Shown: piece by piece, positions 1,526-20,939 of the stretch
How the letters are laid out: each line of letters starts with the position of its first letter
Position numbering within the stretch: the first letter of the stretch is position 1
Source of the DNA: a virus
Reading direction: 5' to 3' (one strand)
Virus record (IMG/VR): IMGVR_UViG_3300042691_002288
Coordinates: 1-24,388 of that record
Length of the DNA stretch: 24,388 bases
The notes under the pieces: model-generated
Told to the model about the DNA's origin: nothing
Database searches by the model: none
The model's input: the letters and a program-made list of their open reading frames with translations, nothing else
Program-made: the position numbers and the translations under genes

Positions 1526-2305
1526 TTATGGTTTAACATATCTTATCATGACAATACCAGATCTTCCAGCATTACCACCGCCACCACCTGCACCAGTATT
1601 ATTTCCTAGATATGTTGTTCCTCCACCATCTCTTGATCCACCTGCACCACCTCTAGCATATTCTGTTGAAGTTCCATTAAAGTTTATAGTAAGACTTGCT
1701 CCACCTGGTTGAGAAGAAAGATCTCCACCACCTTGAACTCCAGCACCACCAGCACCTCCACCTGAACCAGCACCCCAACTTAAATGTTGGTTAGCACCTC
1801 CGTTATTTCCTTGTCCAGCAGTACCATTTCCAAAACCAGTTCCTCTTCCTGCACCACCACCAGATCCACCAGTAGTTCCAGAATATACACCGTCACCCCT
1901 ACCACCATGACCTCCACCAATAGTGCTTACCAGTGAACCAATAGATGATACACCACCAGAACTTGGGACTGATGTTCCACCATTTCCAACTGTAACTAAA
2001 TGTGTAATAGGTGTTACATTAGAAATTGTTCCTTGTAGTAAACCTCCTGCACCACCACCTCCACCTGATCCACCAAAGTTAGTATTTGGTCCACCACCTG
2101 AACCACCACCTGCAACAACTAAATATTGGATATCTGATTTACCACTTAAAACTTGAAAATTATCAGTAGAATTAAATGTGTGAACTATATATGTTGTTCC
2201 ACTAATAGTGGCTTCTGTCATTACTCCGCCAGTTGCGGTAAATGGACTACTTTGTTGTCTTCCTACTATACCTCTAGCCCCATTGAATGATGATAATATT
2301 GGCAT
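1526..2305 (-). CDS. glycine-rich tail adhesin, subtype I
   Basis: A 259-residue protein. Residues 1-60 form a short N-terminal region with the motif VHTFNSTDNFQVLSG, followed by YLVVAGGGSGG at about 61-71, the usual entry into the phage glycine-rich domain. From there to the end, glycine runs alternate with short variable segments, and the protein closes with SGIVMIRYVKP, the conserved C-terminal strand of this family. Related glycine-rich tips, such as the gp38 adhesins of T-even-like phages, fold as packed polyglycine-II helices whose loops bind receptors; that this protein does the same is inference. It follows the 310-aa adaptor-like fibre by eight bases, with AAGGA as ribosome binding site. 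Unlike four of its paralogues it lacks histidines after the first glycine run. One of six paralogues here; a host-contact role is likely. Confidence 0.85.
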   Translation of the reverse strand: MPILSSFNGARGIVGRQQSSPFTATGGVMTEATISGTTYIVHTFNSTDNFQVLSGKSDIQYLVVAGGGSGGGPNTNFGGSGGGGGAGGLLQGTISNVTPITHLVTVGNGGTSVPSSGGVSSIGSLVSTIGGGHGGRGDGVYSGTTGGSGGGAGRGTGFGNGTAGQGNNGGANQHLSWGAGSGGGAGGAGVQGGGDLSSQPGGASLTINFNGTSTEYARGGAGGSRDGGGTTYLGNNTGAGGGGGNAGRSGIVMIRYVKP

Positions 2306-2313
2306 AAGATTCC

Positions 2314-3246
2314 TTAAATATTTAGATTTGTGCTACCAAGTACTATCCAAGAATCAGATAGTCTTAGAAGTGAGAATATAAAGACATCAATCTTGTTTAG
2401 AGAACTTGTTGGGGTTGGAGCAGTTCCACCAACCCATCTAATAGTTTGGTTTGTACCATTAATACTTATAGCATTAGGAATATATCCAGTTGCTGCTTGT
2501 GTTATCATAAATGACATTGTTGTTACTCTATTATTTGTTGTTGGAACATTTGTTAGTATTACACCAAAGTTTGCAATTGTTCCTGACGATGTATGAAATA
2601 TTGCACCATCATTATAATTTCCAGTTACGGATCCAGATACAAATGATAAACTATTTACAACTTCTGTAACTTCAGCAATGTTTGCTGCTCCAGTGACTGT
2701 TAAAGTTGTTAAGTTTGCTGTTGTTGCAGACAATGTTGTTGAGTTTAAAGTAGGTGCAACTACAGTTCCTGTAAAAGTAGGATTTGCAGTAGGTGCATAT
2801 GCTGAAATATTTACTGGTGAAATATTGTAATCTTTATCAATCCAAACTTGACCATGTGTTGGCGTACCAGGTTCATCGTTTACGTATGAAACAACTCCAG
2901 CAGCAGTTACGCTTGGAACTGTTCCGTCTTGATCTACCCAAATATAGCCTTCTGGAAGTGTTGTTGTTGTATTATCTGCTCTTACTAATAAATGAGGAAT
3001 TGCTGTTTGAACAACTCCACCACCTGATGGTGTACTTTCTTGTAATTCTAATCTTGTGTTAAAGTTTGTTAAATGTGAATGAACACTGTCTGCTGCTGGT
3101 GCTTCTGCACCTGTATAGTTATCTAGACCATAGTGATAAAGTTTAAAAGCCTCTACGATATTTGCTTGATCGTTTAATGAGGGGATCTTTGTATCAAATT
3201 CTGTAGCACCGTATCCAGATGCATCACTTAAAAATTGACCTGCCAT
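2314..3246 (-). CDS. tail-fibre/adaptor protein with HxH motif
   Basis: A 310-residue protein typical of aquatic phage fibres. The N-terminal 70 residues carry ANIVEAFKLYHYG and SVHSHLTNF, a pattern I associate with tail-fibre N-terminal regions. Residues 95-150 contain two copies of the short WVDQDG/WIDKDY module shared with other fibres here. After a threonine-rich beta-repeat stretch (about 155-190) comes a C-terminal domain of about 110 residues ending QTIRWVGGTAPTPTSS and SWIVLGSTNLNI. That C-terminal domain is clearly paralogous to the 188-aa protein at 10083-10649. Both are followed directly by a tip-like gene, here a glycine-rich adhesin, which suggests an adaptor role. The ATG is preceded by AAGAAGGTG. 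Structural fibre identity is good; exact virion position is unknown. Confidence 0.85.
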   Translation of the reverse strand: MAGQFLSDASGYGATEFDTKIPSLNDQANIVEAFKLYHYGLDNYTGAEAPAADSVHSHLTNFNTRLELQESTPSGGGVVQTAIPHLLVRADNTTTTLPEGYIWVDQDGTVPSVTAAGVVSYVNDEPGTPTHGQVWIDKDYNISPVNISAYAPTANPTFTGTVVAPTLNSTTLSATTANLTTLTVTGAANIAEVTEVVNSLSFVSGSVTGNYNDGAIFHTSSGTIANFGVILTNVPTTNNRVTTMSFMITQAATGYIPNAISINGTNQTIRWVGGTAPTPTSSLNKIDVFIFSLLRLSDSWIVLGSTNLNI

Positions 3247-3265
3247 TTTGCTTCACCTTCTTAAA

Positions 3266-3841: not shown

Positions 3842-4192
3842 TTATACCCTGCCAGATACGTCTTGTGTTACGCTAATATTTCCTGTTAGTAGTGTGTACT
3901 TAGTTGATGCTGATGTATCATTAATTTGAACATCATAAGTATATGTTGCTAAAGACATTAAGTCTCCTAGCGTTGGTGTAATCTTACATATCAAGGCTGT
4001 AGAGCCAGACTTTGTTACGCTTCCTGTTCCAACTAGCGTTGCACCAGTGCCTCTATCTGTTGCTACTGTAAATAGATTAGAGTTGTAAGATGATAAGTCA
4101 AATGCAGTTCCATTAGCGTTCTTTGGATAAATCACGAATTCGTAACTATCACCACGGTAGTAATTGAAATTATATGTTGCTGGAAATGCCAT
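3842..4192 (-). CDS. small beta-sandwich protein, BppU-N-like
   Basis: A 116-residue protein. The pattern YNFNYYRGDSYEFVIYPKN, then FDLSSYNSNLFT near residue 40, TYTYDVQIND near 85 and LLTGNISVTQDVSGRV at the end resembles the immunoglobulin-like N-terminal fold of phage baseplate upper proteins (BppU type). In such proteins a GDS/GDT turn follows the first strand and the chain ends in a DVS/DVT strand. This is a remote, pattern-based assignment. The gene is preceded by a 28-base gap with a TATAAT-like box and the ribosome binding site AAAGGGTG. It abuts the next gene with no gap. A structural role in the tail tip is plausible. Confidence 0.75.
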   Translation of the reverse strand: MAFPATYNFNYYRGDSYEFVIYPKNANGTAFDLSSYNSNLFTVATDRGTGATLVGTGSVTKSGSTALICKITPTLGDLMSLATYTYDVQINDTSASTKYTLLTGNISVTQDVSGRV

Positions 4193-4208
4193 TTATATCA
4201 CCCTTTTT

Positions 4209-4478: not shown

Positions 4479-4846
4479 TAGTTAAGAAGACTTGATTCTT
4501 CCCATTCCCCTTTGTTATCATTCCATACATAAAACTTATCATCATCTGGGTATGCAACTGGTGCTTCCCATTGACAAGTTTCTTCATTCAATACCCATTT
4601 ACTAAATGGTTTTGGTGAAATAAAAGCATCTTTACTGGAATCATAGACATATCCATTACCAGCATAGTTTTTTCTAAAACTGCCGTTGTATGATGTTTGC
4701 TTCCAAGTGCCACCTAATAAATTGTGACAAAATTCTATACCTACTTCTTCTGATTCAACGCCGTTAGCGTCTAAACAGTCTTTGTTATCTACAACAATCA
4801 CTCTTTGAACGATGTTGTCTGAGTTTAATTCTGCAAAATGTGCCAT
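4478..4846 (-). CDS. conserved small phage protein next to tail fibres
   Basis: A 122-residue protein starting MAHFAELNSDNIVQRVIVVDN. It contains TWKQTSYNGSFRKNYAG around residues 47-63, DAFISPKPFSKWVLNEETC around 73-91, and an acidic, tryptophan-rich end (FYVWNDNKGEWEESS). I recognise this pattern as a small protein common in aquatic myoviruses near fibre genes, but I know of no established function. The conserved aromatic and proline-rich core suggests a compact folded domain. It has the strongest ribosome binding site in the window, AAGGAGGAGA at 4851-4860, in a 30-base gap that also holds a TATAAT-like box. It may therefore begin a transcription unit and be well expressed. A fibre-assembly role is possible but unproven. 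Confidence 0.85.
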   Translation of the reverse strand: MAHFAELNSDNIVQRVIVVDNKDCLDANGVESEEVGIEFCHNLLGGTWKQTSYNGSFRKNYAGNGYVYDSSKDAFISPKPFSKWVLNEETCQWEAPVAYPDDDKFYVWNDNKGEWEESSLLN

Positions 4847-4850
4847 TTGA

Positions 4851-4860
4851 TCTCCTCCTT
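4851..4860 (-). promoter_or_regulatory. strong Shine-Dalgarno site
   Basis: On the minus strand these bases read AAGGAGGAGA, with near-perfect complementarity to the 16S rRNA 3' end, a few bases before the ATG at 4846. Most genes here show only AAGGA, AAGGGG or no separate site, so this one stands out. Confidence 0.8.
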
Positions 4861-4865
4861 GTTAT

Positions 4866-4871
4866 ATTATA
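4866..4871 (-). promoter_or_regulatory. TATAAT box, candidate promoter element
   Basis: The minus strand reads GGATATAATATAACAAGG in the gap before the 122-aa gene, with TATAAT about 20 bases upstream of its ATG. There is no convincing -35 hexamer, which would fit a phage late promoter that needs only a -10-like element. The call rests on one hexamer in AT-rich DNA. Confidence 0.3.
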
Positions 4872-4876
4872 TCCTA

Positions 4877-5563
4877 CTAGTCTCTATATCCGTAAACTTT
4901 TACAGTACCTGAAATACTAGAAGTGTTTGGTAGTATGGTAAATCCGTCAAATGACGTTTGAGTAGTATTAGCAAAACCACCACGTTTAGAAACCCTAACT
5001 GTTGTATCTACCTGATATGCATATGTATCCCATGTTCCAGCGGTAGTTACTGACAAAAATGGATTAGTTACTTCTAAATTAATATATGCTCCTCCACCAT
5101 CAGATGTATTTAATAAATATAACATGTTTGAAATACTACTTGTTCCATTGCTACCACCACTGAATGTTGTTCCAGCATCTCCATAAACTCCTTGAAAATG
5201 AAATTTATAATCTCCACCAGCATTGTCTGTTCCGCTAGAACGAAATCTAACACTAATATTTGCTGCTGCTGCTGCGGTTAGGCCACTAACAACAATTTTA
5301 TAATCTTGATAAGATGAAGAAAAACATTCATTTAAAGATACGGTAGCAGCATTGGAAAAAGTCACGGTTCCATTGGTTCCTATTGTTCCATTAACTACAG
5401 ATGTTGGTCTAATGAGAACAAGACCTGGCAAATATGCTGCTTGATTTAAATATGTTGCACTTGCAGTGCTTTGAGATAAATAGTTATATGCAGATATCTC
5501 TGCATCAGTAGTAATAGCGGTACTTGTTGATAAAATCTTTGACATTTCTCTTGTTATACCCAT
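4877..5563 (-). CDS. tail-fibre protein, shared N-terminal module A
   Basis: A 228-residue protein. Residues 1-40 (MGITREMSKILSTSTAI, then TDAEISAYNYLSQSTAS) closely match the start of the neighbouring 352-aa fibre. The rest is different: a beta-rich C-terminal domain with YQDYKIVVSGL near residue 85, FRSSGTDNAGGDYKFH near 105, and DGFTILPNTSSISGTVKVYG before the stop. That ending is a common phage fibre C-terminal domain. It lies 23 bases after the 352-aa gene, with AAGGGG as ribosome binding site at somewhat long spacing. An internal ATG at residue 7 is possible, but matching the paralogue's start favours the first ATG. Likely a receptor-binding or decoration fibre sharing a docking site with its neighbour. 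Confidence 0.85.
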   Translation of the reverse strand: MGITREMSKILSTSTAITTDAEISAYNYLSQSTASATYLNQAAYLPGLVLIRPTSVVNGTIGTNGTVTFSNAATVSLNECFSSSYQDYKIVVSGLTAAAAANISVRFRSSGTDNAGGDYKFHFQGVYGDAGTTFSGGSNGTSSISNMLYLLNTSDGGGAYINLEVTNPFLSVTTAGTWDTYAYQVDTTVRVSKRGGFANTTQTSFDGFTILPNTSSISGTVKVYGYRD

Positions 5564-5586
5564 AATATTATTCTATACCCCTTGTT

Positions 5587-6645: not shown

Positions 6646-6646
6646 T

Positions 6647-7522
6647 TTAGGCTATCCTATAGCGAACTATTACAATACCGCTTCCGCCACCTGTTCCACT
6701 TCTAGTTCCACCACCTGAAGCAGCCCCAACTCCTCCGCCTCCACCACCACTATTTACAGCACCAGCAGAACCTACGTTTCCTCCACCTCTACCACCTACA
6801 CCACCTCCACCAGCACCTCCAGCAATGTTTGCACCCCAATCGTGACCAGCACCGCCACCACCGCCACCAGCATAATGAGTATTAGTACCAGTAATGGAAT
6901 TTGCTAAACCATCTCCACCAGCACCACCTGGTTGACTTTGGTTACCATCTGGTGCCTTACCACCTGGTGCACCTGCACCGCCACCTCCACCTGCACCATA
7001 TCCAGAAGTTCCGTTTCCTCCACCACCATTGTTTCCTTGACCAGCAGTTCCTTGAGCACTAGTCGTAGTGGAATGTGTGGCACCTCCACCTGATCCACCA
7101 GGAAGTCCACTTTGATTTTCTGTATGAGATGCACCACCACCACCACCTAATGCAACAATGTTATTAAAACTTGAATTTTGTCCGCTTTGTCCTCTACCGT
7201 TAGTAGCGTTTCCACCAGATCCAACAACAACGTTATAAGAACCAATTCCTAAACCTTGAGTTCCAAATAAATATCCACCAGCACCGCCTCCGCCACCAGC
7301 AGGCGTACTGCTGGTAATTCCACCACCTGCACCGCCACCTGCAACAATTAAATAATTAACATCTCCTGTGCCAGCAGTTATTTGAAATGTTCCGCTACCT
7401 GTAAATGTATGATATCTGTAGGTTATTCCACCTACTGTATAATCTGAGAATGCTCCACCAATTGCTACTATGTATGCTCCTGCTGGATTTTTTCCAATTG
7501 AATTTAATGAACTTATTGGCAT
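6647..7522 (-). CDS. glycine-rich tail adhesin, subtype I
   Basis: A 291-residue protein. Residues 1-56 hold an N-terminal region with TYRYHTFTGSGTFQITAG, then VNYLIVAGGGAGGG starts the glycine-rich domain at about residue 56. That domain runs to the end through many glycine runs separated by short variable loops and closes with SGIVIVRYRIA. The small-loop segments, such as GQSGQNSSFNN and GQGNNGGGG, recur in the paralogues. Its ATG overlaps the stop codon of the 111-aa small beta protein by one base, so its translation is probably coupled to it. The same arrangement occurs at 18026. Likely a receptor-binding tip with polyglycine-II packing by analogy with gp38-type adhesins; this is inference. 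Confidence 0.87.
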   Translation of the reverse strand: MPISSLNSIGKNPAGAYIVAIGGAFSDYTVGGITYRYHTFTGSGTFQITAGTGDVNYLIVAGGGAGGGITSSTPAGGGGGAGGYLFGTQGLGIGSYNVVVGSGGNATNGRGQSGQNSSFNNIVALGGGGGASHTENQSGLPGGSGGGATHSTTTSAQGTAGQGNNGGGGNGTSGYGAGGGGGAGAPGGKAPDGNQSQPGGAGGDGLANSITGTNTHYAGGGGGGAGHDWGANIAGGAGGGGVGGRGGGNVGSAGAVNSGGGGGGVGAASGGGTRSGTGGGSGIVIVRYRIA

Positions 7523-7857
7523 TAGTCTGCAGTCACCTCCGCGTATGATAATGTAAAACTAACATCGTTACTAGAGGCCCATACTGACATAACATCAGCA
7601 GCACCCATCGTAATTCCGTCTCCTAGTTGTATTGTGTCAAATGGAGAAACAGTTAAACCAAAAAATAAATAGTGTTTATTAACTATTGATTCACCCAATG
7701 GTCTTACTGCAATTCTTACTGAAGCAGATACGCTTCCTAAGTTACAAACGTGTATATTTGATACTACTGTTTGTGTGAGTGCTGGAACTGAATATAAAGT
7801 TGTTAATACTCCAGCAGATGGTATAACCTGAGCGGGCGACTTATAAACATTAGGCAT
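7522..7857 (-). CDS. small beta protein preceding a glycine-rich adhesin
   Basis: A 111-residue protein starting MPNVYKSPAQVIPSAG. I chose the ATG at 7857 because it forms a TAATG overlap with the upstream stop. The open frame extends upstream only through 21 tryptophan- and arginine-rich codons inside the previous gene, which look like shadow. The region QTVVSNIHVCN, then GESIVNKHYLFFG and QLGDGITMGAADVMSVW, matches the C-terminal half of the 189-aa protein at 18026-18595 (QTLISTITVTN, GETLSKKHYIAWG, LTLGLTITSGDKIVAF). The 115-aa protein at 19325 looks like a third relative. Alternating hydrophobic residues suggest a beta sandwich. It sits between a fibre and an adhesin and is coupled to both, so an adaptor or cap role is likely but unproven. 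Confidence 0.85.
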   Translation of the reverse strand: MPNVYKSPAQVIPSAGVLTTLYSVPALTQTVVSNIHVCNLGSVSASVRIAVRPLGESIVNKHYLFFGLTVSPFDTIQLGDGITMGAADVMSVWASSNDVSFTLSYAEVTAD

Positions 7858-9341
7858 TAGTATACTCCAAAGAATGGGTGAAGACCAGAGTCTCCGCCAC
7901 CACCAGAAACAGCGATCCACTTAGTTCCATTATACACTTTCAATTTGGGTGAAGTGATAGTTGTAGAATCAATCCATAGCGTACCAGGAACTGGTGAAGT
8001 TGGTGATGCTGATACATAAGGTATGTTTGGTTCAAAATCAAGACTAGCCACATTAAATGGCTTTAATCCAATAACTTCTAATATATCTCCAGAAACAATG
8101 GGGGTAGCAAAAGTAATAACAGTATTTGCTAATCTTGTATAGTCAATAACTGGGGTAAGTAAAATACCATTTAAATATACTTGTTCATATCCAGGAATAT
8201 AACTTAGAGTAGTTCCTAAATCATCTACCCCTGTAATTACAGAAGCACTTGATAGATAGGCTTTTCTCCATCTAGAATATTCATTATATTTAGAATCTAT
8301 TTGACCTTGAGTATATGTACTAACATTTGTAGAATTTTGATATGCATAAATATCTATAATTTCATTAGGCAATATTGGTTGATTTAAAGTAATTAAATTT
8401 GTATTAGTAGTAGTATATTCATTATTAGCAAGTAATACTCCATTTATGAATACTTGTTCATACCCTGGATTATATTGTAAACTATATAGATTATCATCAG
8501 ATCCAGTTATAGCAGTTGCTGATGCAGAGTATGTCTTTCTCCATCTAGTAAATGCCATACTTGCAGTTTTAGGAAGATAATTACTTACTGCATTTGCGAT
8601 TGTTAAGTAATCAGTGCTTGCAATAAATTGAGTTAAATATGTTGAAGAAGCAGAAGATTGAGTTAGGTAAGTTGATGATGCTGATGCTTTAGATAAGTAG
8701 TCTTGTGCTATTTGTGCTGGGGTGGTGTATGTTGATGATGCTGAAGACTGAGTTAAGTAGTTTGATGATGCTGAAGACTGAGTTAAGTATGTTGATGATG
8801 CTGAGGATAATGTAAGATAGTCAAGAAATTCTGGTTCAACAAAAGATGTACCATTAAAGTATTTTAAAACACCGTTATCTGAGTCAACCCAAAATGTTCC
8901 AACATTTATAAATGGATCAGAAATTGATGGATCTGCTGATTGATAAATTGCAGCACTATCACTTACGTTAGCCCATTTTAATCCATTCCACATGTGTGTT
9001 TTTTTAGTATCTGTTTCATATATGACCATTCCAATATTTGGATACCCTGGTCTTGTTACAGATGTAACGTAAACAAAAGGATTAAGTCTTAAGTAGTCAA
9101 GTCCCATTTGAACATTTGTTGCACTTGCTGAAGTATAAATTGAAGGACTGTAAGCAATTTGAGTTGCACTTGTTGCGGTGTAGTCTGGAGTTGCAGATGC
9201 TGCACTATTTACCCAAACTGTTCCAATTTCTACAATGTCTGGTTCTGATGCTTGATAAACAACCTTTGCTGTTGTTCCAAGCAAATTATCAACGGCGGGC
9301 TGCCAAGCAAGTCCGTCCCAAATATACATTGGTTTTGTCAT
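7857..9341 (-). CDS. tail fibre with 10-residue repeats and duplicated NGxLL domain
   Basis: A 494-residue protein. Residues 5-47 hold the opening module MYIWDGLAWQPA with GTVWVNS, and a second set is at 117-165 (MWNGLKW, GTFWVDSDNG). Residues 174-260 are a decamer repeat array of the form SSASSTYLTQ. Two copies of a domain of about 70 residues follow at 266-334 and 357-427, each with RWRK(T/A)Y, then PGYEQV, NG(V/I)LL and a final strand. The C terminus (439-494) is the module LWIDST, LKVYNGTKWIAVSG, then a short glycine stretch. These are typical phage fibre shaft and knob parts. The stop overlaps the start of the 111-aa gene. It leads a three-gene cassette that is repeated at 16998-19291. 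Probably a trimeric fibre. Confidence 0.92.
   Translation of the reverse strand: MTKPMYIWDGLAWQPAVDNLLGTTAKVVYQASEPDIVEIGTVWVNSAASATPDYTATSATQIAYSPSIYTSASATNVQMGLDYLRLNPFVYVTSVTRPGYPNIGMVIYETDTKKTHMWNGLKWANVSDSAAIYQSADPSISDPFINVGTFWVDSDNGVLKYFNGTSFVEPEFLDYLTLSSASSTYLTQSSASSNYLTQSSASSTYTTPAQIAQDYLSKASASSTYLTQSSASSTYLTQFIASTDYLTIANAVSNYLPKTASMAFTRWRKTYSASATAITGSDDNLYSLQYNPGYEQVFINGVLLANNEYTTTNTNLITLNQPILPNEIIDIYAYQNSTNVSTYTQGQIDSKYNEYSRWRKAYLSSASVITGVDDLGTTLSYIPGYEQVYLNGILLTPVIDYTRLANTVITFATPIVSGDILEVIGLKPFNVASLDFEPNIPYVSASPTSPVPGTLWIDSTTITSPKLKVYNGTKWIAVSGGGGDSGLHPFFGVY
8583..8822 (-). repeat. 30-bp in-frame repeats coding a 10-residue fibre repeat
   Basis: About eight consecutive 30-bp units in the same register code for decapeptides of the type TYLTQSSASS in the 494-aa fibre. 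Two plus-strand units (8731-8760 and 8761-8790) are almost identical, sharing TGATGATGCTGAAGACTGAG. The unit at 8701-8730 has diverged, and the flanking ones are degenerate. The repeats keep frame, so unit number can change without breaking the gene. Confidence 0.85.
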
Positions 9342-9366: not shown

Positions 9367-10074
9367 TTATAGGCCATGTACGTTCCTTAAAGCATTAAAA
9401 TTATCAAAAATTTCTATATTTGATAAGGCACGATCATATACTCTAATGGTAGATATTCTACATTGTGAAAACTCTCCAGGATTTCCATTATGTATGTTAC
9501 AAACTTGAGCAGTAAAATTATTTGTAAATCCATTTTTAGAACCTGCTGGATTTCCATTTTTGTATGCATATGCTACTGAAGATTCTCTTTTTACTACAAT
9601 ATGATTCCAAGTATTTAAAGTTAAACCCCAACCAGCAGTTGACCCATAAGTATCAAAAGTTGGAGTATATAGATAAACCTGTCCACCTCCAGGTGATCCC
9701 ACATCTGCTTTTAAGGCTAATGTTGTTTGCAATGGAAAAGCAATCATGTGTGTATATTTTGTAAAATCTTGTGGATATATCCAACATTCTAGTGTAAAAT
9801 CTCCTGTACCAAAAGCAAACTTTGAGTTAGATGCTATTGTTGCAAAATCATCAGTTCCGTCAAATTGAATATAAGGTCTAGTTACCGTTGGACCATTTGT
9901 TAAAGTTGCATTTGTTGGACTTGCACTAAGATCTATCCATGTTGTACCAGATCCAGGGTATGAGTTAGAATTATTAGCATATAAGTTTAAAACAAGTCCA
10001 ATTGAAGATACTTTATATCTTGCATTTTTACTATAGACGCTATTATTGCCACCAAGAGTTGTTAAAGTAGGCAT
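9367..10074 (-). CDS. LamG / concanavalin A-like lectin domain fibre tip
   Basis: A 235-residue protein. After about 25 N-terminal residues it has the classic opening LVLNLYANNSNSYPGSGTTW and IDLS (27-50), then the strand IQFDGTDDFATIAS (69-82), GDFTLECWIYPQ (91-102), TLNTWNHIVVKRES (152-165) and ISTIRVYDRALSNIEIFDNF (207-226). This is the laminin G-like (Laminin_G_3) jelly roll, which fills almost the whole chain. Such domains bind carbohydrates and are common at phage fibre tips. It follows the 188-aa adaptor-like protein by eight bases with AAGGAG. Its first residues (MPTLTTLGGNNSVY) resemble those of glycine-rich adhesins in the same position, hinting at interchangeable tips. Lectin fold is firm; the ligand is unknown. 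Confidence 0.92.
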   Translation of the reverse strand: MPTLTTLGGNNSVYSKNARYKVSSIGLVLNLYANNSNSYPGSGTTWIDLSASPTNATLTNGPTVTRPYIQFDGTDDFATIASNSKFAFGTGDFTLECWIYPQDFTKYTHMIAFPLQTTLALKADVGSPGGGQVYLYTPTFDTYGSTAGWGLTLNTWNHIVVKRESSVAYAYKNGNPAGSKNGFTNNFTAQVCNIHNGNPGEFSQCRISTIRVYDRALSNIEIFDNFNALRNVHGL

Positions 10075-13667: not shown

Positions 13668-13670
13668 TTG

Positions 13671-14570
13671 TTAGCCTCCCAGCATTATATCTGTTGCTTT
13701 GAACGGATATATCCTGTTTCTTGTAGTTGTTGCCGAACCCATCATTATCCTAGCATCGAACGTTGATCCAGCGGGTGGTCTTTCTGAAAATGCAATGTAC
13801 CCTTCTGAGTCTATCATAAATCCGTCTCTAGGAAGCATTGACTGCCAGACGTATTCGGGAAAGTCTACTGTTTGTATTATACCATTAATCGTAAGTAATA
13901 GTCTATATGGGTTTGCAAGATTTACTATTTCTCCTCTATATGTTGGATAAAATCTACTTTCTATACCGTCAAATTTCCATTTCAAATCATCTAATGGAAT
14001 TATGTCGTCATCTACAAATAAAGATATTTTATTATTAACATCGTCATAATTTACAGATACCCCCGCAGTTGAGGCACTTGCGAATAGTGAGGCAATAAGG
14101 TCTTGAATAAATTCTTGTCCAGATGATCCGTAGTTAACATATTGTGAAGATGCACTTTGTTTGCTTAGGTATTCTGCTGAGGCACCAGTCTTACTTAGAT
14201 AGTTTGAAGATGCTGTTGTATTAGATAAATAGTTTGTTGTAACATTATTTGATAGTGTTACTAAAGAAGAGTTTATAGCACTTACAGATGCACTATTAGA
14301 GTTAGTAAAGTTAAATAGTTCAGTGCTTGTTGCAAAGCCTGCTGAAGCAGCAATTAATTCTGTTAAATCAGTATGTGTATGGTCTGAACCACTTATTTCA
14401 GAATCGGCATCTACCCATAGCAAGCCTATTTTAGGATCAGATGGTGATGCTGATGAATATGAAACATATGTATAGTTACCAACGTTTGTTATATCATTTA
14501 CAGGAATCCATTGTGATCCAGACCACACATAGGCTGGTCTAGTTGTTAAGGATATAGTTGCTGAGGCCAT
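13671..14570 (-). CDS. tail fibre with HTHT motif and conserved C-terminal domain
   Basis: A 299-residue protein. Residues 10-23 hold the opening module TRPAYVWSGSQWIPV, with GLLWVDADSE at 49-58. SGSDHTHTDLTELI at 60-73 contains an HxH motif like those that bind metal in T4 fibre proteins. Residues 110-160 hold a short decamer array (NYLSNTTASS, EYLSKQSASS). The last 110 residues are a distinctive domain: RFYPTYRG, YRLLLTINGIIQ, FPEYVWQSMLPRDGF and IYPFKATDIMLGG at the very end. I recall this end domain from aquatic myovirus fibres. Its ATG overlaps the stop of the assembly chaperone by one base, so chaperone and fibre are made together. Probably one client of that chaperone. Confidence 0.9.
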   Translation of the reverse strand: MASATISLTTRPAYVWSGSQWIPVNDITNVGNYTYVSYSSASPSDPKIGLLWVDADSEISGSDHTHTDLTELIAASAGFATSTELFNFTNSNSASVSAINSSLVTLSNNVTTNYLSNTTASSNYLSKTGASAEYLSKQSASSQYVNYGSSGQEFIQDLIASLFASASTAGVSVNYDDVNNKISLFVDDDIIPLDDLKWKFDGIESRFYPTYRGEIVNLANPYRLLLTINGIIQTVDFPEYVWQSMLPRDGFMIDSEGYIAFSERPPAGSTFDARIMMGSATTTRNRIYPFKATDIMLGG

Positions 14571-14968
14571 TACGCATCTTCTCCTGGAACTGTATCTGTA
14601 ATAAAGTCTTCATCTTCTGGTCTGACTTCTCCAGGAAACCTAGGAAAATCAACGTAGGCAGGAAATTCTGTATTGGCTGGTAAATCCCTTAAGGCTCTTC
14701 TGTAAGTCGTCCATTCAGCCCTTAATTCCTCTGTAATAGGTGCGTCTGCTATCTGAGTCCAATCACAATTTAATAATCTTTTATTTCTTTCCTGTCTTAA
14801 TGTTTCCCATCTAATAATATTAGTTTTTTCAAAATTTATAATTTGATCTACCTTGATATCTAATTCTTCATCGGTATATTCAATTGGATTACCAAGTGAA
14901 TCATAACTTATATTATTAATTAAGTTAGTTCTGGCAATCTCTCTTAGTTCTATTTCTTTTTCAGTCAT
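14570..14968 (-). CDS. phage tail-fibre assembly chaperone (Phage_tail_APC-like)
   Basis: A 132-residue protein. Residues 54-97 hold the family signature: RWETLRQERNKRLLNCDWTQ, then ADAPITEEL, then WTTYRRALRDLP. After this comes a proline-rich end (FPAYVDFPRFPGEVRP). This matches the small chaperones thought to fold or load tail fibres, as encoded next to fibre genes in many phages. Residues 1-50 are an added charged, partly helical segment. It sits between the three tandem glycine-rich adhesins and the 299-aa fibre, two bases after the former and overlapping the latter. No Shine-Dalgarno site is visible, so translation probably depends on the upstream gene. It is the only chaperone-like gene among more than 20 fibre and structural genes. 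Confidence 0.87.
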   Translation of the reverse strand: MTEKEIELREIARTNLINNISYDSLGNPIEYTDEELDIKVDQIINFEKTNIIRWETLRQERNKRLLNCDWTQIADAPITEELRAEWTTYRRALRDLPANTEFPAYVDFPRFPGEVRPEDEDFITDTVPGEDA

Positions 14969-14970: not shown

Positions 14971-15972
14971 TTAAAATGAAGTAGGATTAGTAAAACCAAA
15001 TCTTACTATAACTACCCCACTACCCCCTTTTCCTGCTGAACCACTTGGACTTGCATGCGATCCGCCACCGCCGCCGCCTAAACCATCTGTACCATTTCCT
15101 GGAACTACGTTTGGACTATGGCTTGCACCATTTCCTCCTCCACCAATTCCACCTGTAGAACTTGCAGTATGTCCATGTCCGCCACCACCACCTGAATAAT
15201 GTGTTGCTGTACCAGTAATACTATTTACTTGTCCTGGTCCACCTGGTCCACCGTTATTTCCACTAACAGTAGTTCCAACTCCACCTGCACCACCTCCACC
15301 ACCGCCACCCCATGATGAGTGATGATATCCTCCACCACCATAATTTCCTTGACCTAATTGAGCAGAACCACCGTGACCTCTTCTTTCTCCTGGTGTATCT
15401 CCACCTGCAGAGGAATTTCCCATTGCACCACCTCCACCAGAACCACCTGGTGTTCCATTACCATAAGCACATTGATAATTACCACCACCGCCACCACCTA
15501 TGGCCATTAAATGCATAAATGATGAATTACCACCTGGAACTCCTGGAGAGTTGCTACTATAAGGTCCAGAAGCACCTCCTGCACCAACCGTTATTAGTGT
15601 ACTATTTGTATCTACTAAAATACCAGACTCGTAAATATAACCACCGCCGCCACCGCCACCACCGTGATGATTTCCTCCACCACCGCCACCACCAATTATT
15701 AATACGTCTGCATATGCACCAACAAATGGTGATAAATCTACAGTTTGTGAACCTGTATTTGTAAATGATTTATATGCAAACCAACTTGCACCTGATGCGT
15801 AAGTTATCCAACCATAATTTTGAATCCATTGAATAAATGTTGGACTTGCACTAAATATTTGTGTTTTTGAAACACCTTGATTAATTTTTGTTGTAACAAA
15901 TCTATATAAGGCTGGATTTGCTCCAGCAGGCAAAACACTTGCTAATTCAGAAGTAGAAAAATTATCTGGCAT
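14971..15972 (-). CDS. glycine-rich tail adhesin, subtype II (third of a tandem triplet)
   Basis: A 333-residue protein. Residues 5-85 are an N-terminal domain shared with the next two upstream genes: FSTSELASVLPAG, LYRFVTTKINQGVSK and GWITYASGASWFAYKSF. Then ADVLIIGGGGGGGNHHGG starts the glycine-rich domain near residue 88, which ends SGVVIVRFGFTNPTSF. It has unusually many histidines in the loops (NHHGG, YHHSSW, GHGHT), and poly-glycine tracts of up to seven or more. The start overlaps the stop of the preceding adhesin by one base. GGC codons are frequent in the glycine tracts, though the genome is AT rich. Likely a receptor-binding tip; which of the three is displayed is unknown. Confidence 0.88.
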   Translation of the reverse strand: MPDNFSTSELASVLPAGANPALYRFVTTKINQGVSKTQIFSASPTFIQWIQNYGWITYASGASWFAYKSFTNTGSQTVDLSPFVGAYADVLIIGGGGGGGNHHGGGGGGGGYIYESGILVDTNSTLITVGAGGASGPYSSNSPGVPGGNSSFMHLMAIGGGGGGNYQCAYGNGTPGGSGGGGAMGNSSAGGDTPGERRGHGGSAQLGQGNYGGGGYHHSSWGGGGGGGAGGVGTTVSGNNGGPGGPGQVNSITGTATHYSGGGGGHGHTASSTGGIGGGGNGASHSPNVVPGNGTDGLGGGGGGSHASPSGSAGKGGSGVVIVRFGFTNPTSF

Positions 15973-16997
15973 TATCCAATACCCCCTGGAGAATAAACAA
16001 TTTGAGTCCTAATAACAACTATACCAGTTGCACCAGAGCCGCCTCTAATACTATTACTATGACCGCCACCACCGCCACCACCGCCACTATTTGGAGCAGC
16101 AGCAGCGTGAGCATTAACAAAAGATGGATGCGTTAGTCCCAATCCTCCGCCACCTATTCCACCAGTTCCACCAAAGTATGCATGAGACCATCCACCACCT
16201 CCACCTGCAAACCATCTTGTATAACCTAAAATTGTATTTGATAAACCATTTCCACCAGCACCACCAGAGTCGTTTCCAAGTCTACCGACACCAGTAGATC
16301 CAGCACCTCCACCGCCACCACTAGGGTATCCTATACCAGCGTGCCAACCTGAACCACCATGATTTCCTTGACCAGTTACTGCATATCCAGGAGTTGATAC
16401 TTGACTGTTTGATTGCCAAGTAAAGTTATTTCCGTTACCACTAGAGTGTCCGATTGATCCACCACCACCTGATCCACCAGCAGAACCAGAGCCAACATTG
16501 CTATAAGTTCCACCACCTCCACCACCTATTGAAATTATGTCGTCAATAACTGAGTTTGAACCATTTGAACCTCTTGCATTTGATTGACTTGCCATGGCAC
16601 CAAGGCCGCCTTCACCAACTGTAATAGAAATATTAGATTTATTAAAAACCTTTGTTGTTAAGCGATATCCTCCTGCTCCACCACCACCACCATGTTGTCC
16701 GCCACCTCCACCTCCACCTGCAACACATAAAACATCAAAAGTGTTTTTTTCAAATGGTGTTATTGTTGTAGTTGTTGTTCCAGCAGTATTAAATTCTTTA
16801 CATGCATAAAATGCGTTTGATTGAAAATATATTTTCCATCCAAGTGATTCTAGATAATTTAAATAACTTATACCGTCATATGTTTTTGTTCTAGTAAAAT
16901 CATTTTGCATTGCATATGAGAAATATCTATATACCCCGCTAGTATTTCCATTTTTTAATAATGCAGTAACGTCATCAGAAGTGTAAATTTCTGGCAT
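15972..16997 (-). CDS. glycine-rich tail adhesin, subtype II (second of a tandem triplet)
   Basis: A 341-residue protein. The N-terminal domain (residues 4-87) matches its two tandem neighbours in layout: YTSDDVTALLKNG, VYRYFSYAMQNDFTRTK and SLGWKIYFQSNAFYACKEF. The glycine-rich domain begins FDVLCVAGGGGGGGQHGG near residue 87 and ends TGIVVIRTQIVYSPGGIG. Its loops differ strongly from the neighbours in length and residues. One loop is aromatic (WFAGGGGGWSHAYFGG), and a run of eight glycines lies near the end. The gene begins immediately after the stop of the preceding adhesin with no gap. The pattern points to tandem duplication followed by loop divergence. Confidence 0.88.
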   Translation of the reverse strand: MPEIYTSDDVTALLKNGNTSGVYRYFSYAMQNDFTRTKTYDGISYLNYLESLGWKIYFQSNAFYACKEFNTAGTTTTTITPFEKNTFDVLCVAGGGGGGGQHGGGGGAGGYRLTTKVFNKSNISITVGEGGLGAMASQSNARGSNGSNSVIDDIISIGGGGGGTYSNVGSGSAGGSGGGGSIGHSSGNGNNFTWQSNSQVSTPGYAVTGQGNHGGSGWHAGIGYPSGGGGGAGSTGVGRLGNDSGGAGGNGLSNTILGYTRWFAGGGGGWSHAYFGGTGGIGGGGLGLTHPSFVNAHAAAAPNSGGGGGGGGHSNSIRGGSGATGIVVIRTQIVYSPGGIG

Positions 16998-18026
16998 TTA
17001 GATTGACCCCGCTGGGAAAGATAGTGGGAATCTTACTACTACAACTCCAGAGCCGCCATGTCCACCCATAAATGATACAGACCATCCTCCACCACCACCG
17101 CCACCAGTATTTGCTATGCCATCACTTGCTTTATACATATATGTACCACCAAAACCTCCACCACCATTACCACCTGTTCCTCCAGGATTTGATTCACCAC
17201 TTCCACCACCGCCACCGCCAGCATAAAATTTAGTAACTCCAGTTATTGAGTTTGATAATCCTCCACCACCTGCTCCACCTCTACTTCCTGTTCCCCAAGA
17301 ACCGTCAGCACCTGCAGCACCTGCACCTCCACCACCGCCACCTACGTGGTTACTATCATGTCTTCCACGACCACCATTATTTCCTTGACCAGAAGTTCCA
17401 GTACCACCATTACTCCAAGTAGATCCTGAAGGTCCAAGAGATCCTCCACCACCAGATCCACCAGCAGAACCATTTCTTGTTGGGTCTCCAGACCAAGCAC
17501 CTCCACCTCCACCACCAATTGCTGTTATTGATCCAAAAACAGAATTTTGACCATTAGCACCTCTAATATCTGTTGCTTGAACACTTAAACCACCATTTCC
17601 AACTGTTACTGTTTGATTACCGCTTACTGCAACATTTGTTTCATATCTATATCCACCAGCACCGCCTCCACCTGCGTGATGTGAACCACCTGCACCACCA
17701 CCTGCTACAACAAGAACGTCAGCATTTGTTCCATTAAAAGGACCAGCATTCCAAGTTGTTGTACCACTTGTAAATTCTTTATATGCAAAATAATTTCCAG
17801 AAGAATCTCTATATGTTGTATAACCATTAGAAGCAATATAATCTAAATACTGAGTACCAGATAATATATTTGCCTTTGTTTTACCCTGGCTAATTGCCCA
17901 TGCAACATATGAAAATGTTGCGGGTGGTGAACTAATTGGAATTATATTTGCTAATTCTGAATATGAAAATAAAGTTTGACCTACTGAACTACTTCCTGTA
18001 GTTCCTCTTATACTATTTACAGCCAT
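16998..18026 (-). CDS. glycine-rich tail adhesin, subtype II (first of a tandem triplet)
   Basis: A 342-residue protein. After a 17-residue leader (MAVNSIRGTTGSSSVGQ) comes the subtype II N-terminal domain: FSYSELANIIPIS, FSYVAWAISQGKTK, then YTTYRDSSGNYFAYKEF, ending near residue 103. ADVLVVAGGGAGGSHHAGG starts the glycine-rich part, which ends SGVVVVRFPLSFPAGSI. The leader is absent from the other two members of the triplet and resembles the start of fibre-type genes, so it may be the original docking peptide. Its ATG overlaps the stop of the 189-aa small beta protein by one base, repeating the arrangement at 7522. Receptor-binding tip by analogy with gp38-type adhesins. Confidence 0.88.
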   Translation of the reverse strand: MAVNSIRGTTGSSSVGQTLFSYSELANIIPISSPPATFSYVAWAISQGKTKANILSGTQYLDYIASNGYTTYRDSSGNYFAYKEFTSGTTTWNAGPFNGTNADVLVVAGGGAGGSHHAGGGGAGGYRYETNVAVSGNQTVTVGNGGLSVQATDIRGANGQNSVFGSITAIGGGGGGAWSGDPTRNGSAGGSGGGGSLGPSGSTWSNGGTGTSGQGNNGGRGRHDSNHVGGGGGGAGAAGADGSWGTGSRGGAGGGGLSNSITGVTKFYAGGGGGGSGESNPGGTGGNGGGGFGGTYMYKASDGIANTGGGGGGGWSVSFMGGHGGSGVVVVRFPLSFPAGSI

Positions 18027-18595
18027 TAGACTATTTCTCCCCCAAATAAAGATATAGCAATATTTGGAGCACCAAATGCCACTATCTTATCTCCTGATGT
18101 AATTGTTAATCCTAAAGTTAATGAAATCTGATCTCTTGCTAAAATACCTGGTCCCCAGGCTATATAATGTTTCTTGCTTAAAGTTTCCCCAGTTTTAACT
18201 ACTGCTATAAAGAATGTTCCGTCTGTATTTGAACAGTTTGTTACTGTTATTGTTGAAATTAATGTTTGAGTACTTGGTGAGGCTGGACATGTGTAGATAA
18301 TTGTTTCTGGAACATAGGCAACGCTAGCACCAACAGTTGCTGCTGTTACTACGTTACTTGCAGTTACTGGGTATGTGAAAGAAGTATTATTTGGTACAGT
18401 AGAAACATCTTGATTACCATTAAATATTGCATCAATTCCTGTTACTGTTACATAGTTTCCTTCAACAATGTTATGTGATGTTGCTGTTGTTAGAGTTACA
18501 AGATTACTTGTTAAGTTTCTAAATGAAATGGCTCTTGATTCTGTGGTTAAAAGAGTTTGACCTAAAATCTTTAAGGTTTTTACTTGTTGTGCCAT
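18026..18595 (-). CDS. small two-domain beta protein preceding a glycine-rich adhesin
   Basis: A 189-residue protein. Residues 20-95 form an added domain with LTTATSHNIVEGNYVTVTGI, FNGNQDVSTVPNNTSFTYPV. This is the same HNL/NGxF/FxY pattern found in the 1002-aa structural protein. Residues 98-189 (QTLISTITVTN, GETLSKKHYIAWG, LTLGLTITSGDKIVAF) match the whole 111-aa protein at 7522-7857. The gene is thus that small protein with an extra N-terminal beta domain. It lies between the 231-aa fibre (no gap) and the first of the triplet adhesins (one-base overlap), just as its shorter relative lies between a fibre and an adhesin. Likely a linker or adaptor in a fibre tip; inferred from context. Confidence 0.85.
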   Translation of the reverse strand: MAQQVKTLKILGQTLLTTESRAISFRNLTSNLVTLTTATSHNIVEGNYVTVTGIDAIFNGNQDVSTVPNNTSFTYPVTASNVVTAATVGASVAYVPETIIYTCPASPSTQTLISTITVTNCSNTDGTFFIAVVKTGETLSKKHYIAWGPGILARDQISLTLGLTITSGDKIVAFGAPNIAISLFGGEIV

Positions 18596-19291
18596 TTATA
18601 CTCCCATAAGCAGTAGCGTGTCAAAAATATCCCCGCCGCCGCCAGCACCTGACATTTCAATCCAGGTACTTCCATTATACACTTTCAATATCGGTGCTTC
18701 TGCTTCTGTTGTATCGATCCAAAGTTGTCCAGTTGCAATTTGATATGCAGGAGATGAAGTATTATAGGTAATATTAGGTTCATATGTAGCAGACGCTGCT
18801 GTTACTGTTAAATATGTTGCTGAAGCATTGGCGGTAGAAAGAATACTCATTACATCTTGATTAGTCCATTGAGTAGAAGAAGAATTATATGCTAATAATT
18901 GATTATTTGAAGGGGAAGCAATAGTGCTATCTGTAAGACTATTTAAATTTGTAATTGTAGAAGATATTGTTAATGTATTTGTAGCACTAGCAGCATTTAA
19001 AGTAATGCTTGTTCCTGCTTCTATATTTATATTATCAAAATCTGAATCTGCTAATATTTGTTGTGTTGCTGGAGTTGTTGTGATGTATCCAAAACCATGA
19101 GGATTAACTATTCCTGTACCTAGATAATCGTTACTATCTACCCAAACTGTACCTACATCTAAAGCACTAACGTCTGGTTGATTTGGTTGATATAGTACTG
19201 CATCATTTCTTGTTTGAGTAATTGGTACCCAGTTAGTTCCATTCCAGACATATGCTGGTCTAGTAGTATCTAGTATTTGTGCCGAAGACAT
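18596..19291 (-). CDS. tail fibre with WNGTNWVPI opening and KVYNG ending
   Basis: A 231-residue protein. Residues 9-52 hold the opening module TTRPAYVWNGTNWVPI with GTVWVDSND. Residues 73-115 (TPATQQILADSDFDN, then GTSITLNAASATNTLTI) are closely similar to residues 62-99 of the 659-aa fibre. A short decamer repeat (ANASATYLTVTAASATYEP) follows. The C terminus carries QLWIDTTEAEAP, LKVYNGSTWIEMSG and a glycine run, as in the 494-aa fibre. It is in effect a short version of that fibre without the duplicated NGxLL domains. The ribosome binding site is AAAGGAG at slightly long spacing. It heads a cassette of fibre, small beta protein and glycine-rich adhesin. Confidence 0.9.
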   Translation of the reverse strand: MSSAQILDTTRPAYVWNGTNWVPITQTRNDAVLYQPNQPDVSALDVGTVWVDSNDYLGTGIVNPHGFGYITTTPATQQILADSDFDNINIEAGTSITLNAASATNTLTISSTITNLNSLTDSTIASPSNNQLLAYNSSSTQWTNQDVMSILSTANASATYLTVTAASATYEPNITYNTSSPAYQIATGQLWIDTTEAEAPILKVYNGSTWIEMSGAGGGGDIFDTLLLMGV

Positions 19292-19324
19292 AATTGGTAA
19301 TAACTCCTTTAATTAAATTAGATA

Positions 19325-19672
19325 CTATGAAACTCTATTTACATATCCTAAAACTGATACAAGATTTGCACTAGCGGCAAACCCTCTTACAACTGCTGAA
19401 TTATTTAATGGTAGACCAGGAACAACTAGTACTAAACCAGATTCTCCAGGAATATTTAATTCTATTTGATCTTTTTCTGCAGTACCACCAAATTCTACGG
19501 TAAATTTTACACTTGTTGATGCTGAATTATCTGCATACAGCCATACTTCGTCTAAACCAGTTATTCCAGGTTGAGATGTGTGTATTAATGTTCCAGGAGT
19601 TGATGTTGCTGCAACTAGTGTTGACGCTCCATTTATAGAAGAACTAAGAAAAGTTTTTGTAAAAGTAGCCAT
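19325..19672 (-). CDS. small beta protein, probable relative of the fibre-linked small proteins
   Basis: A 115-residue protein starting MATFTKTFLSSSINGAS. The layout of its strands (TPGTLIHTSQ, then EVWLYADNSASTSVKFTVEF, IPGESGLVLVVPGLPL, ending VSVLGYVNRVS) resembles the 111-aa protein and the C-terminal half of the 189-aa protein. That similarity is weaker than theirs to each other and is my inference. It has no signal peptide or membrane segment. It lies two bases after the 113-aa gene, with an AAAGAGG ribosome binding site inside that gene's last codons. Virion structural or tip component is the likeliest role. Confidence 0.75.
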   Translation of the reverse strand: MATFTKTFLSSSINGASTLVAATSTPGTLIHTSQPGITGLDEVWLYADNSASTSVKFTVEFGGTAEKDQIELNIPGESGLVLVVPGLPLNNSAVVRGFAASANLVSVLGYVNRVS

Positions 19673-19674
19673 GT

Positions 19675-20016
19675 TTACCTCTTTACCATTGTATCATTTT
19701 TTCTAGGGTATGGTATTTTTAACTCATCTAGTCTTTTGGCTGCATGAATGTCACTACCTTTTCCATAGTATGTTGAATCTATCTTTCTATTTATAACTAC
19801 CATATAAAATTCAGCATATGGCATCCATGATGCATATACTCCACTAGAACCTTTTTCTGCAATTACTTCCCAAATATCAATATCTTCTATTTGTAATTCT
19901 CTTTTATAATCCCATTTTGGATTTGGGGGAAGTGAATTTTTTTGGTTATTCCAATTTTCATCAAAATAATCTGTACAATCTGTAAATATATCTTTACTTG
20001 TTCTAAAAAGTGGCAT
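19675..20016 (-). CDS. conserved phage protein of unknown function
   Basis: A 113-residue protein starting MPLFRTSKDIFTDC. It contains KWDYKRELQIEDIDIWEVIA at about 34-53 and YASWMPYAEFYMVVINRKID at about 61-80. A lysine-rich end has YGKGSDIHAAKRL and the final residues MVKR. I recall related small proteins in aquatic myovirus genomes, with the TSKDIF start and the PYAEFYM core, but no known role. Unlike its neighbours it is not beta-repeat rich, and its charge pattern suggests a soluble, mixed alpha/beta domain. It overlaps the stop of the glycine-rich adhesin before it by one base. It may help assemble or attach that adhesin, but this is speculation from position. Confidence 0.8.
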   Translation of the reverse strand: MPLFRTSKDIFTDCTDYFDENWNNQKNSLPPNPKWDYKRELQIEDIDIWEVIAEKGSSGVYASWMPYAEFYMVVINRKIDSTYYGKGSDIHAAKRLDELKIPYPRKNDTMVKR

Positions 20017-20939
20017 TATATTGCATACCTAACTATTATTACTCCACTACCGCCAACAGACGAAACTTCTCCACTACCGTGTCCAGATCCACCACCGCCA
20101 CCGCCAAGACCATTTGTTCCAGCAACTCCTCTTCCACCTTCACCTCGACCATCTCCTCCACCACCAGTTCCTCCATTTCCATGACCATTCCATGCCATAC
20201 CGTTATGACCACCACCGCCTCCACCACCAGCGTAAAATGTTCCAAAGAATGATCTACCAGATCCGCCATTACCATTTCCACCAGTTGAGTTTGTGTTATT
20301 TGAATTTACGCCTGCTGCACCAGCACCGCCTCCACCACCAGAACCATGTGCTTGACTTCCTGTATTATTAAAAAGTGAATTTCCGTTGCCACCAGCATGT
20401 CCATAACCAATTCCACCAGTAGATCCTTGTATTGTATTTCCACCTAAACAACCTACGTGTGCTGCACCACCACCTGGTCCTCCACCTCCACCTGAACCGC
20501 CATCTCTTCCTGAAGTCCTGTTATTATTTGTACCAGCACCGCCTCCACCACCTACTGCTATTAATCCAGAAAATGTTGAGTTTGAACCACTTGCTGCTGG
20601 ACCAAAGTACATGTTAGATTGTGATATTCCACCAGCACCCACTGTTATTGCATAGTTTCCAACATTTCCATTTACTGATTGTGATGATACGTAAAGTATT
20701 CCACCACCACCTCCACCACCTGCGTGTGATCCAGCACCTGCACCACCACCAGCAACTAATAATATTTCAATATCTTTTGATCCATTTCTAACTGTAAATA
20801 CATCTGGACCAGTTGCTTGAAATGTGTGTATTTTAAATTGTCCAGCATATGATATTGCTCCACCAACTGCATCAAATGTGCTATTTTCTTCTATTTTTGA
20901 TATTTGTCTACCTGATAAAAATCTTTGTATACCGCTCAT
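20016..20939 (-). CDS. glycine-rich tail adhesin, subtype I with histidine
   Basis: A 307-residue protein. Residues 1-58 have a short N-terminal region with FKIHTFQATGPDVFTVRNG, then IEILLVAGGGAGAGSHAGG starts the glycine-rich domain near residue 58. That domain runs to the end and closes SGVIIVRYAI. The HTF and FxVxxG pattern before the glycine entry groups it with the genes at 1526 and 6647, but the SHAGG after the first glycine run is shared with the triplet at 14971-18026. It may thus be intermediate or recombinant. The start overlaps the stop of the 659-aa fibre by one base, so fibre and adhesin are probably produced together. Likely receptor-binding tip. Confidence 0.88.
   Translation of the reverse strand: MSGIQRFLSGRQISKIEENSTFDAVGGAISYAGQFKIHTFQATGPDVFTVRNGSKDIEILLVAGGGAGAGSHAGGGGGGGILYVSSQSVNGNVGNYAITVGAGGISQSNMYFGPAASGSNSTFSGLIAVGGGGGAGTNNNRTSGRDGGSGGGGGPGGGAAHVGCLGGNTIQGSTGGIGYGHAGGNGNSLFNNTGSQAHGSGGGGGAGAAGVNSNNTNSTGGNGNGGSGRSFFGTFYAGGGGGGGHNGMAWNGHGNGGTGGGGDGRGEGGRGVAGTNGLGGGGGGSGHGSGEVSSVGGSGVIIVRYAI

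What the first reader, a model, noticed from the sequence alone, without database searches (positions are those of the whole stretch)
1526..20939. Six glycine-rich adhesin paralogues in two subtypes
Genes at 1526, 6647, 14971, 15972, 16998 and 20016 share the (V/I)AGGG or (I)GGGG entry, glycine runs with short variable loops, and an SG(V/I)(V/I)xxR ending. Three have a short HTF-type N-terminal region (subtype I) and three a longer SEL/GWxxY-type domain (subtype II). Loop sequences differ greatly while the glycine frame is kept. This is what one expects if polyglycine-II packed loops are the variable receptor contacts, as in gp38-type adhesins.
Basis: partly seen in the sequence, partly recalled or inferred. 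Interest (0 to 1): 0.7.

Follow-up and report, generated by a model that had tools for sequence, protein, structure and literature searches.

The report
Glycine-rich phage tail-tip adhesin family
This fragment of a virus that infects bacteria carries six related glycine-rich proteins that are very probably swappable gripping tips for its tail fibres; the family and its fold are already known, but such a large set, with close relatives exchanging tips gene by gene, shows how these viruses may adjust which hosts they can grip.

Summary
The six genes exist at the stated coordinates, are homologous far beyond composition bias, and all pass the curated cut-off of Pfam PF21722 (Gly_rich_2). AlphaFold2 models of one gene of each subtype are confident (pLDDT 92 and 89). 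Their best solved match is the Pam3 cyanophage tail fibre gp24 (Z 15.8 for both), then mycobacteriophage Bxb1 gp33. The domain is therefore a TNF-like sandwich with a packed glycine lattice (TG fold). It is not a recognisable gp38: the gp38 model PF05268 finds nothing in the window, and PF21722 finds nothing in phage S16. Non-glycine positions evolve faster than control genes (dN/dS 0.33 against 0.14) but below 1. Variation is mostly at gene level: one slot is hypervariable, one copy with its two neighbours is missing in two relatives, one slot swaps with a LamG-like gene, and the tandem cassette has a different genealogy from its flanks. In relatives the same domain is fused to fibre C-termini. 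A tail-assembly chaperone follows the tandem, and a small unnamed protein recurs just upstream of such genes (9 of 16 independent cases, 2.2 expected). Best reading: interchangeable receptor-binding tips, a new member of a known kind. Receptor, host and oligomeric state are unknown.

The parts
1526..2305 (-). Gly-rich adhesin, subtype I (259 aa); PF21722 domain at 1538-2161
   Evidence: orthologues 85-92% identical in L011 and L012
6647..7522 (-). Gly-rich adhesin, subtype I (291 aa); hypervariable slot; PF21722 domain at 6656-7402
   Evidence: orthologues only 54-59% while gene 7857-9341 is 84-95%; model m1f7ee52350c5, pLDDT 92.2
14971..15972 (-). Gly-rich adhesin, subtype II (333 aa); PF21722 domain at 14998-15720
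15972..16997 (-). Gly-rich adhesin, subtype II (341 aa); PF21722 domain at 16005-16784
16998..18026 (-). Gly-rich adhesin, subtype II (342 aa); PF21722 domain at 17028-17768
   Evidence: model m42681c974b9a, pLDDT 88.6
20016..20939 (-). Gly-rich adhesin, subtype I (307 aa), start overlapping the stop of the long fibre-like gene; missing from this place in L011 and L012
17769..17978 (-). subtype II N-terminal helical module of 16998-18026 (about residues 17-86; four short helices in the model); putative docking module
   Evidence: no match in 50,697 phage records
16788..16997 (-). subtype II N-terminal module of 15972-16997
15763..15972 (-). subtype II N-terminal module of 14971-15972
14570..14968 (-). 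tail (fibre) assembly chaperone, PF16778 Phage_tail_APC, directly downstream of the subtype II tandem
   Evidence: PF16778 E 3e-19; phrog_4912 tail fiber assembly E 1e-19; same place in L008, L011, L012
20939..22918 (-). long fibre-like protein (659 aa) just upstream of 20016-20939; its counterparts in L011 (916 aa) and L012 (1077 aa) carry a C-terminal Gly-rich domain
7522..7920 (-). small partner protein (about 110 aa from the likely start near 7857) immediately upstream of 6647-7522
18026..18595 (-). protein whose C-terminal half is the same partner family, immediately upstream of 16998-18026
9367..10074 (-). LamG/ConA-like protein in a slot that holds a Gly-rich gene (13596-14348) in L012
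   Evidence: PF13385 E 1e-16; slot swap

Best explanation
The six genes encode receptor-binding tip proteins of a tailed phage's fibres. Each has a TNF-like beta-sandwich from which glycine-rich stretches run out and pack side by side into a rigid lattice; the short non-glycine loops between them form the contact surface. Different N-terminal parts (short leaders in subtype I, a helical module in subtype II) would dock the tips on different fibres or baseplate sites, helped by the assembly chaperone encoded next to the tandem and perhaps by a small partner protein encoded just upstream. The phage would change what it grips partly by loop substitutions, but mainly by swapping, gaining or losing whole tip genes in fixed slots. 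Shown here: homology, predicted fold, gene neighbourhood, slot swaps, faster loop evolution. Inferred: presence on the virion, docking role of the N-terminal modules, receptor binding.
For: PF21722 and phrog_2295 matches for all six. Models: pLDDT 92.2/pTM 0.90 and 88.6/0.88. Pam3 fibre 7ypx: Z 15.8, rmsd 2.5 over 184 residues (6647) and Z 15.8, rmsd 4.4 over 217 (16998); Bxb1 9d93: Z 14.9 and 14.7. The A4 profile against PDB sequences finds only the Pam3 fibre with significance (E 2.5e-6). [quoted passage not shown] In Klebsiella phage SCNJ1-Y, whose fibre resembles Pam3 gp24, mutations at Thr169 and Ser209 in the glycine-rich domain restored infection (PMC12671077). In relatives the domain is the C-terminal part of long fibre-like proteins: L011 916 aa, L012 1077 aa, and L075 1141 aa with tail-protein family matches at its N-terminus. 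Adjacent tail-assembly chaperone. Slot turnover. dN/dS of non-glycine positions 0.33 against 0.14 in eight control genes; 0.67 in the 6647 slot. Tandem genealogy differs from flanking genes, p < 1e-11.
Against: No experiment exists on this phage; host and receptor are unknown. dN/dS stays below 1, so loop variation could be relaxed constraint instead of selection for new contacts. Conservation of the glycines is no stronger than that of glycines in ordinary neighbouring genes (0.064 against 0.054). Some relatives of the large structural protein lack PF21722 matches in the held sequence (5 of 24 records searched). Six different tips on one virion has not been demonstrated.
Confidence: 0.75

Rival explanations
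1. They are true gp38-type adhesins: a polyglycine sandwich on a beta-helix, capping a gp37-like trimer through an N-terminal helical bundle.
For: Glycine runs separated by variable loops as in gp38 (PMC6851490; PMC12892980); subtype II has N-terminal helices; 20016-20939 follows a long fibre-like gene.
Against: No PF05268 match in the window and no PF21722 match in S16, while PF05268 finds S16 gp38 at E 2e-74. The models match Pam3 gp24 and Bxb1 gp33 instead. Subtype I has no helical bundle.
Confidence: 0.07
2. They are brush-like accessory domains as described for Bxb1 gp33, giving many weak, rather unspecific contacts with the cell surface; they do not set host range.
For: Bxb1 gp33 (tail wing brush domain, PMC13243192) is the second-best fold match, Z 14.7-14.9; many copies per phage.
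Against: Hypervariable 6647 slot, slot swaps and gene gain or loss fit specificity better; mutations in a related domain changed infection in SCNJ1-Y (PMC12671077).
Confidence: 0.15
3. They are parts of head fibres or other virion decoration without a role in tail-mediated adsorption.
For: The neighbouring 10659-13667 matches phrog_5838, filed under head and packaging, and 5587-6645 has a weak head-spike-fibre match below its cut-off.
Against: Tail-assembly chaperone next door, fusion to fibre-like proteins including one with tail-protein matches, the partner protein encoded among tail genes in other phages, and location of the two solved homologues on tail structures.
Confidence: 0.05

Closest known systems
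Cyanophage Pam3 tail fibre gp24 (PDB 7YFW, 7YPX)
   Same: TNF-like domain plus glycine-rich lattice with a variable tip; the only significant PDB sequence match (E 2.5e-6); best fold match (Z 15.8)
   Different: gp24 is one fibre with a long helical shaft and its own chaperone gp25; here there are six stand-alone genes with short or helical N-termini
Mycobacteriophage Bxb1 gp33, tail wing brush domain (PDB 9D93)
   Same: similar fold by model (Z 14.7-14.9)
   Different: a siphophage tail tip of a mycobacterial host; described there as a brush domain
gp38 adhesin of S16, T2 and PP01 (PF05268, PDB 6F45)
   Same: packed polyglycine helices with variable loops as the receptor contact: the same working principle
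   Different: different Pfam family with no cross-match either way; gp38 builds its lattice on a beta-helix
Klebsiella phage SCNJ1-Y TFP_Y
   Same: Pam3-like TNF and glycine-rich domains; recognises lipopolysaccharide (PMC12671077)
   Different: single fibre protein; its own sequence was not compared here
Synechococcus phage Bellamy
   Same: a cultured phage with many copies: 11 PF21722 matches, 9 over the cut-off
   Different: copies mostly lie two per ORF in longer proteins; annotated as hypothetical or tail fiber
ALK/LTK receptor TG domain
   Same: TNF-like plus glycine-rich arrangement (Z 6.1-7.7)
   Different: animal receptor kinases; the scores are in the range that can mean a shared arrangement only

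Membership tests
Gly_rich_2 (PF21722) | score above the curated cut-off (24.3 bits) | tested here: met
   42.2-88.2 bits for all six
TNF-like/glycine-rich (TG) fibre tips, Pam3 gp24 kind | TNF-like sandwich with packed glycine-rich extensions | tested here: met
   two confident models, one of each subtype; Z 15.8 to 7ypx; the other four by sequence homology
TNF-like/glycine-rich (TG) fibre tips, Pam3 gp24 kind | significant sequence similarity to the solved fibre | tested here: met
   profile E 2.5e-6 to 7yfw
TNF-like/glycine-rich (TG) fibre tips, Pam3 gp24 kind | trimer with an N-terminal helical docking domain | not testable with these tools
   oligomers were not modelled; subtype II has N-terminal helices, subtype I does not
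TNF-like/glycine-rich (TG) fibre tips, Pam3 gp24 kind | adjacent assembly chaperone | tested here: met
   PF16778 gene directly after the tandem, conserved in three relatives; its homology to Pam3 gp25 was not established
gp38 adhesins (PF05268) | match to the family profile | tested here: not met
   no match in the window at E up to 1; S16 control matches at 2e-74
gp38 adhesins (PF05268) | beta-helix base carrying the polyglycine sandwich | tested here: inconclusive
   models match TNF-like structures; 6F45 was not listed, which does not exclude it
gp38 adhesins (PF05268) | caps the tip of a gp37 trimer | not testable with these tools
   would need a complex structure
Bxb1 gp33 brush domain | fold | tested here: met
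   Z 14.9 and 14.7
Bxb1 gp33 brush domain | tail wing location | not testable with these tools
   no virion data

The most novel reading that the evidence does not exclude
One virion carries six to eight different TG-fold tips at once, each docked through its own N-terminal module or small partner protein to a fixed slot, and the phage lineage swaps tips between slots and with unrelated lectin-like modules, giving a combinatorial, multi-receptor adsorption apparatus.
Probability: 0.25. Interest if true: 0.6.

Novelty: new member of a known kind. Interest (0 to 1): 0.4.

Why it matters
PF21722 proteins are common in environmental phages but mostly annotated only as 'glycine-rich domain-containing'. 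Linking this set to a solved fold, an assembly chaperone, fibre fusions and slot-by-slot exchange gives a concrete and testable role. The small partner protein is a simple genomic marker for such adhesins and could help annotate many phage genomes, including one isolate whose adhesin ORF is missing from its deposited annotation (Pontimonas phage phiPsal1).

Tried and rejected
Relatives sought with the glycine-only alignment or with 20016-20939 gave nothing, and tblastn of whole proteins against phages gave nothing; low-complexity filtering is the likely cause for the latter. Absence of 6F45 (gp38) from the fold lists is not used as proof. A diversity-generating retroelement as the source of variation: no reverse transcriptase (PF00078) in the window or the three closest contigs, which are fragments. 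Conserved glycines as a sign of special constraint: rejected, glycines in control genes are equally conserved. Recent gene conversion among the six across whole genes: not seen, as each slot's copy is closer to its orthologue (82-92%, or 54-59% in the 6647 slot) than to other copies. Loop orientation (distal or proximal) could not be assigned without coordinates. Host assignment failed: no psbA-type gene (PF00124) in relatives' fragments and no near DNA match in phage records. A solved relative of the partner family was not found (best E 0.08).
Full report
OBSERVATION. The window is a complete 24,388-base virus record, itself a fragment of a tailed phage. Its large structural protein (10659-13667, phrog_5838) is about 45% identical to those of Synechococcus phages such as S-RSM4, but there is no close DNA match in 50,697 phage records. 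They align along their length and pass the PF21722 cut-off. A leave-one-out profile test gives 55-184 bits for real sequences and at most 19.4 for composition-preserving shuffles. The motif description holds with small exceptions (see observation check).

SUBTYPES. The two subtypes are real as N-terminal architectures. Subtype II carries a helical module of about 60 residues (helices at 22-28, 35-46, 51-54 and 57-66 of 16998). This module was found only in this phage group: no match among phage records, and only the same three relatives in the viral contigs. The glycine domains themselves do not form two clades: 15972 and 16998 are sisters (100/98), while 14971 and the subtype I domains fall at poorly resolved places among domains of other phages. 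'Six paralogues' should therefore be read as six members of a large family gathered in one genome, with one clear local duplication.

FOLD. AlphaFold2 models built on 46 and 53 aligned sequences from the window and fetched loci are confident (pLDDT 92.2, pTM 0.90 for 6647; 88.6, 0.88 for 16998). Both match the Pam3 cyanophage fibre best (Z 15.8; rmsd 2.5 over 184 residues and 4.4 over 217), then the Bxb1 tail tip (Z 14.9, 14.7), then the ALK/LTK TG domains at Z 6.1-7.7, which by itself could be a shared arrangement. The sequence profile finds only the Pam3 fibre with significance (E 2.5e-6). In Pam3 the glycine-rich motifs stack in a four-layer lattice with the most variable residues at the distal tip (PMC9608196), and polyproline-II-type bundles have been noted in 7YFW and in Bxb1 gp33 (PMC13243192). 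The polyglycine core is thus predicted by homology; helix geometry was not measured here. By contrast, PF05268 (gp38) finds nothing in the window, finds S16 gp38 at 2e-74, and PF21722 finds nothing in S16.

NEIGHBOURHOOD. The tandem 18026-16998-15972-14971 is tightly spaced or overlapping, with stop and start codons sharing a base at several junctions, and is followed by a Phage_tail_APC chaperone gene. Gene 20016-20939 overlaps the end of a 659-aa fibre-like gene; the counterparts of that gene in relatives are 916 and 1077 aa and end in a PF21722 domain. Elsewhere the domain ends a 1141-aa protein with tail-protein matches at its start (L075). These fusions place the domain at fibre ends.

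PARTNER. A family of about 105 residues is encoded directly upstream of 6647 and, as the C-terminal half of 18026-18595, of 16998. Across the fetched loci it is followed directly by a glycine-rich gene in 19 of 26 cases; after collapsing near-identical phages, 9 of 16 against 2.2 expected (p = 5e-5). The same arrangement is seen in two of five further records found afterwards with the partner alone (ct2KA10 and Pontimonas phage phiPsal1). The loci were partly chosen because they carry glycine-rich genes; the permutation within loci allows for that, and the five later records are free of it. Its role is unknown; adaptor or co-adhesin is a guess.

VARIATION. Against three relatives, four slots are 82-92% identical and the 6647 slot only 54-59%, while its neighbour 7857-9341 is 84-95%. 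Gene 20016-20939 and the two genes after it are missing from L011 and L012, but part of that group is present in L008. The LamG-like gene 9367-10074 is replaced in L012 by another glycine-rich gene. Pooled dN/dS in four slots is 0.33 at non-glycine positions, 0.19 in N-termini and 0.064 at glycines; eight control genes give 0.139 and 0.054 at non-glycine and glycine positions. Loops are therefore less constrained than ordinary genes here, but not shown to be under positive selection. Site patterns among four phages group the window with L011 through the tandem and 13671-14570, but mainly with L008 in 10659-13667, and without such a majority in 18026-19291 (chi-square p = 7e-25 and 2e-12 against the tandem). 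Within genes, clustering is significant only for 15972 among the tandem genes (p = 0.003). Exchange is thus mostly of genes or cassettes; with four sequences, small tracts could be missed.

COPY NUMBER. The two longest close relatives have eight PF21722 matches each in 56 and 81 kb, and the cultured phage Bellamy has nine over the cut-off. Large sets are a feature of several phage lineages, not a peculiarity of this window.

CONCLUSION. Most likely these are interchangeable receptor-binding tips of the TG fold. Experimental support comes from related proteins only (SCNJ1-Y, PMC12671077; a glycine-rich adhesin gene tracking host range in haloarchaeal viruses, PMC8651126; gp38 itself, PMC12892980).

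Noticed in passing
window 7522-7920, 18026-18595 and many loci (alignment A6): A small protein family (about 105 aa, no Pfam family over its cut-off; weak phrog_1276 and phrog_11338 matches) recurs immediately upstream of Gly-rich genes; in Streptomyces phage Saftant and phiPsal1 it lies among tail genes.
   Followed up: partly
L089 (Pontimonas phage phiPsal1) 4328-5236: A 302-aa Gly-rich open frame (E 7e-39) is missing from the deposited annotation, which calls an ORF at 4527-5000 (locus coordinates) in another frame instead.
   Followed up: no
window 2-1264 (+): NodU/Nol-like carbamoyltransferase (phrog_1601, E 5e-107), a metabolic or host-takeover gene on the opposite strand.
   Followed up: no
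window 4877-6645: Two fibre-like genes whose slot differs strongly in L011 and L012 (N-terminal 59 residues of 5587-6645 60% identical in L011, the rest unmatched): another variable slot next to a Gly-rich gene.
   Followed up: partly
window 2314-3246 and 10083-10649: These two genes share a C-terminal region: each one's counterpart in the relatives matches the other at 34-41%; paralogous structural proteins of unknown role.
   Followed up: no
window 20939-22918: Residues 164-270 match Phage_cement_2 (PF09956, E 3e-6) inside a fibre-like protein.
   Followed up: no
[quoted passage not shown]
   Followed up: no
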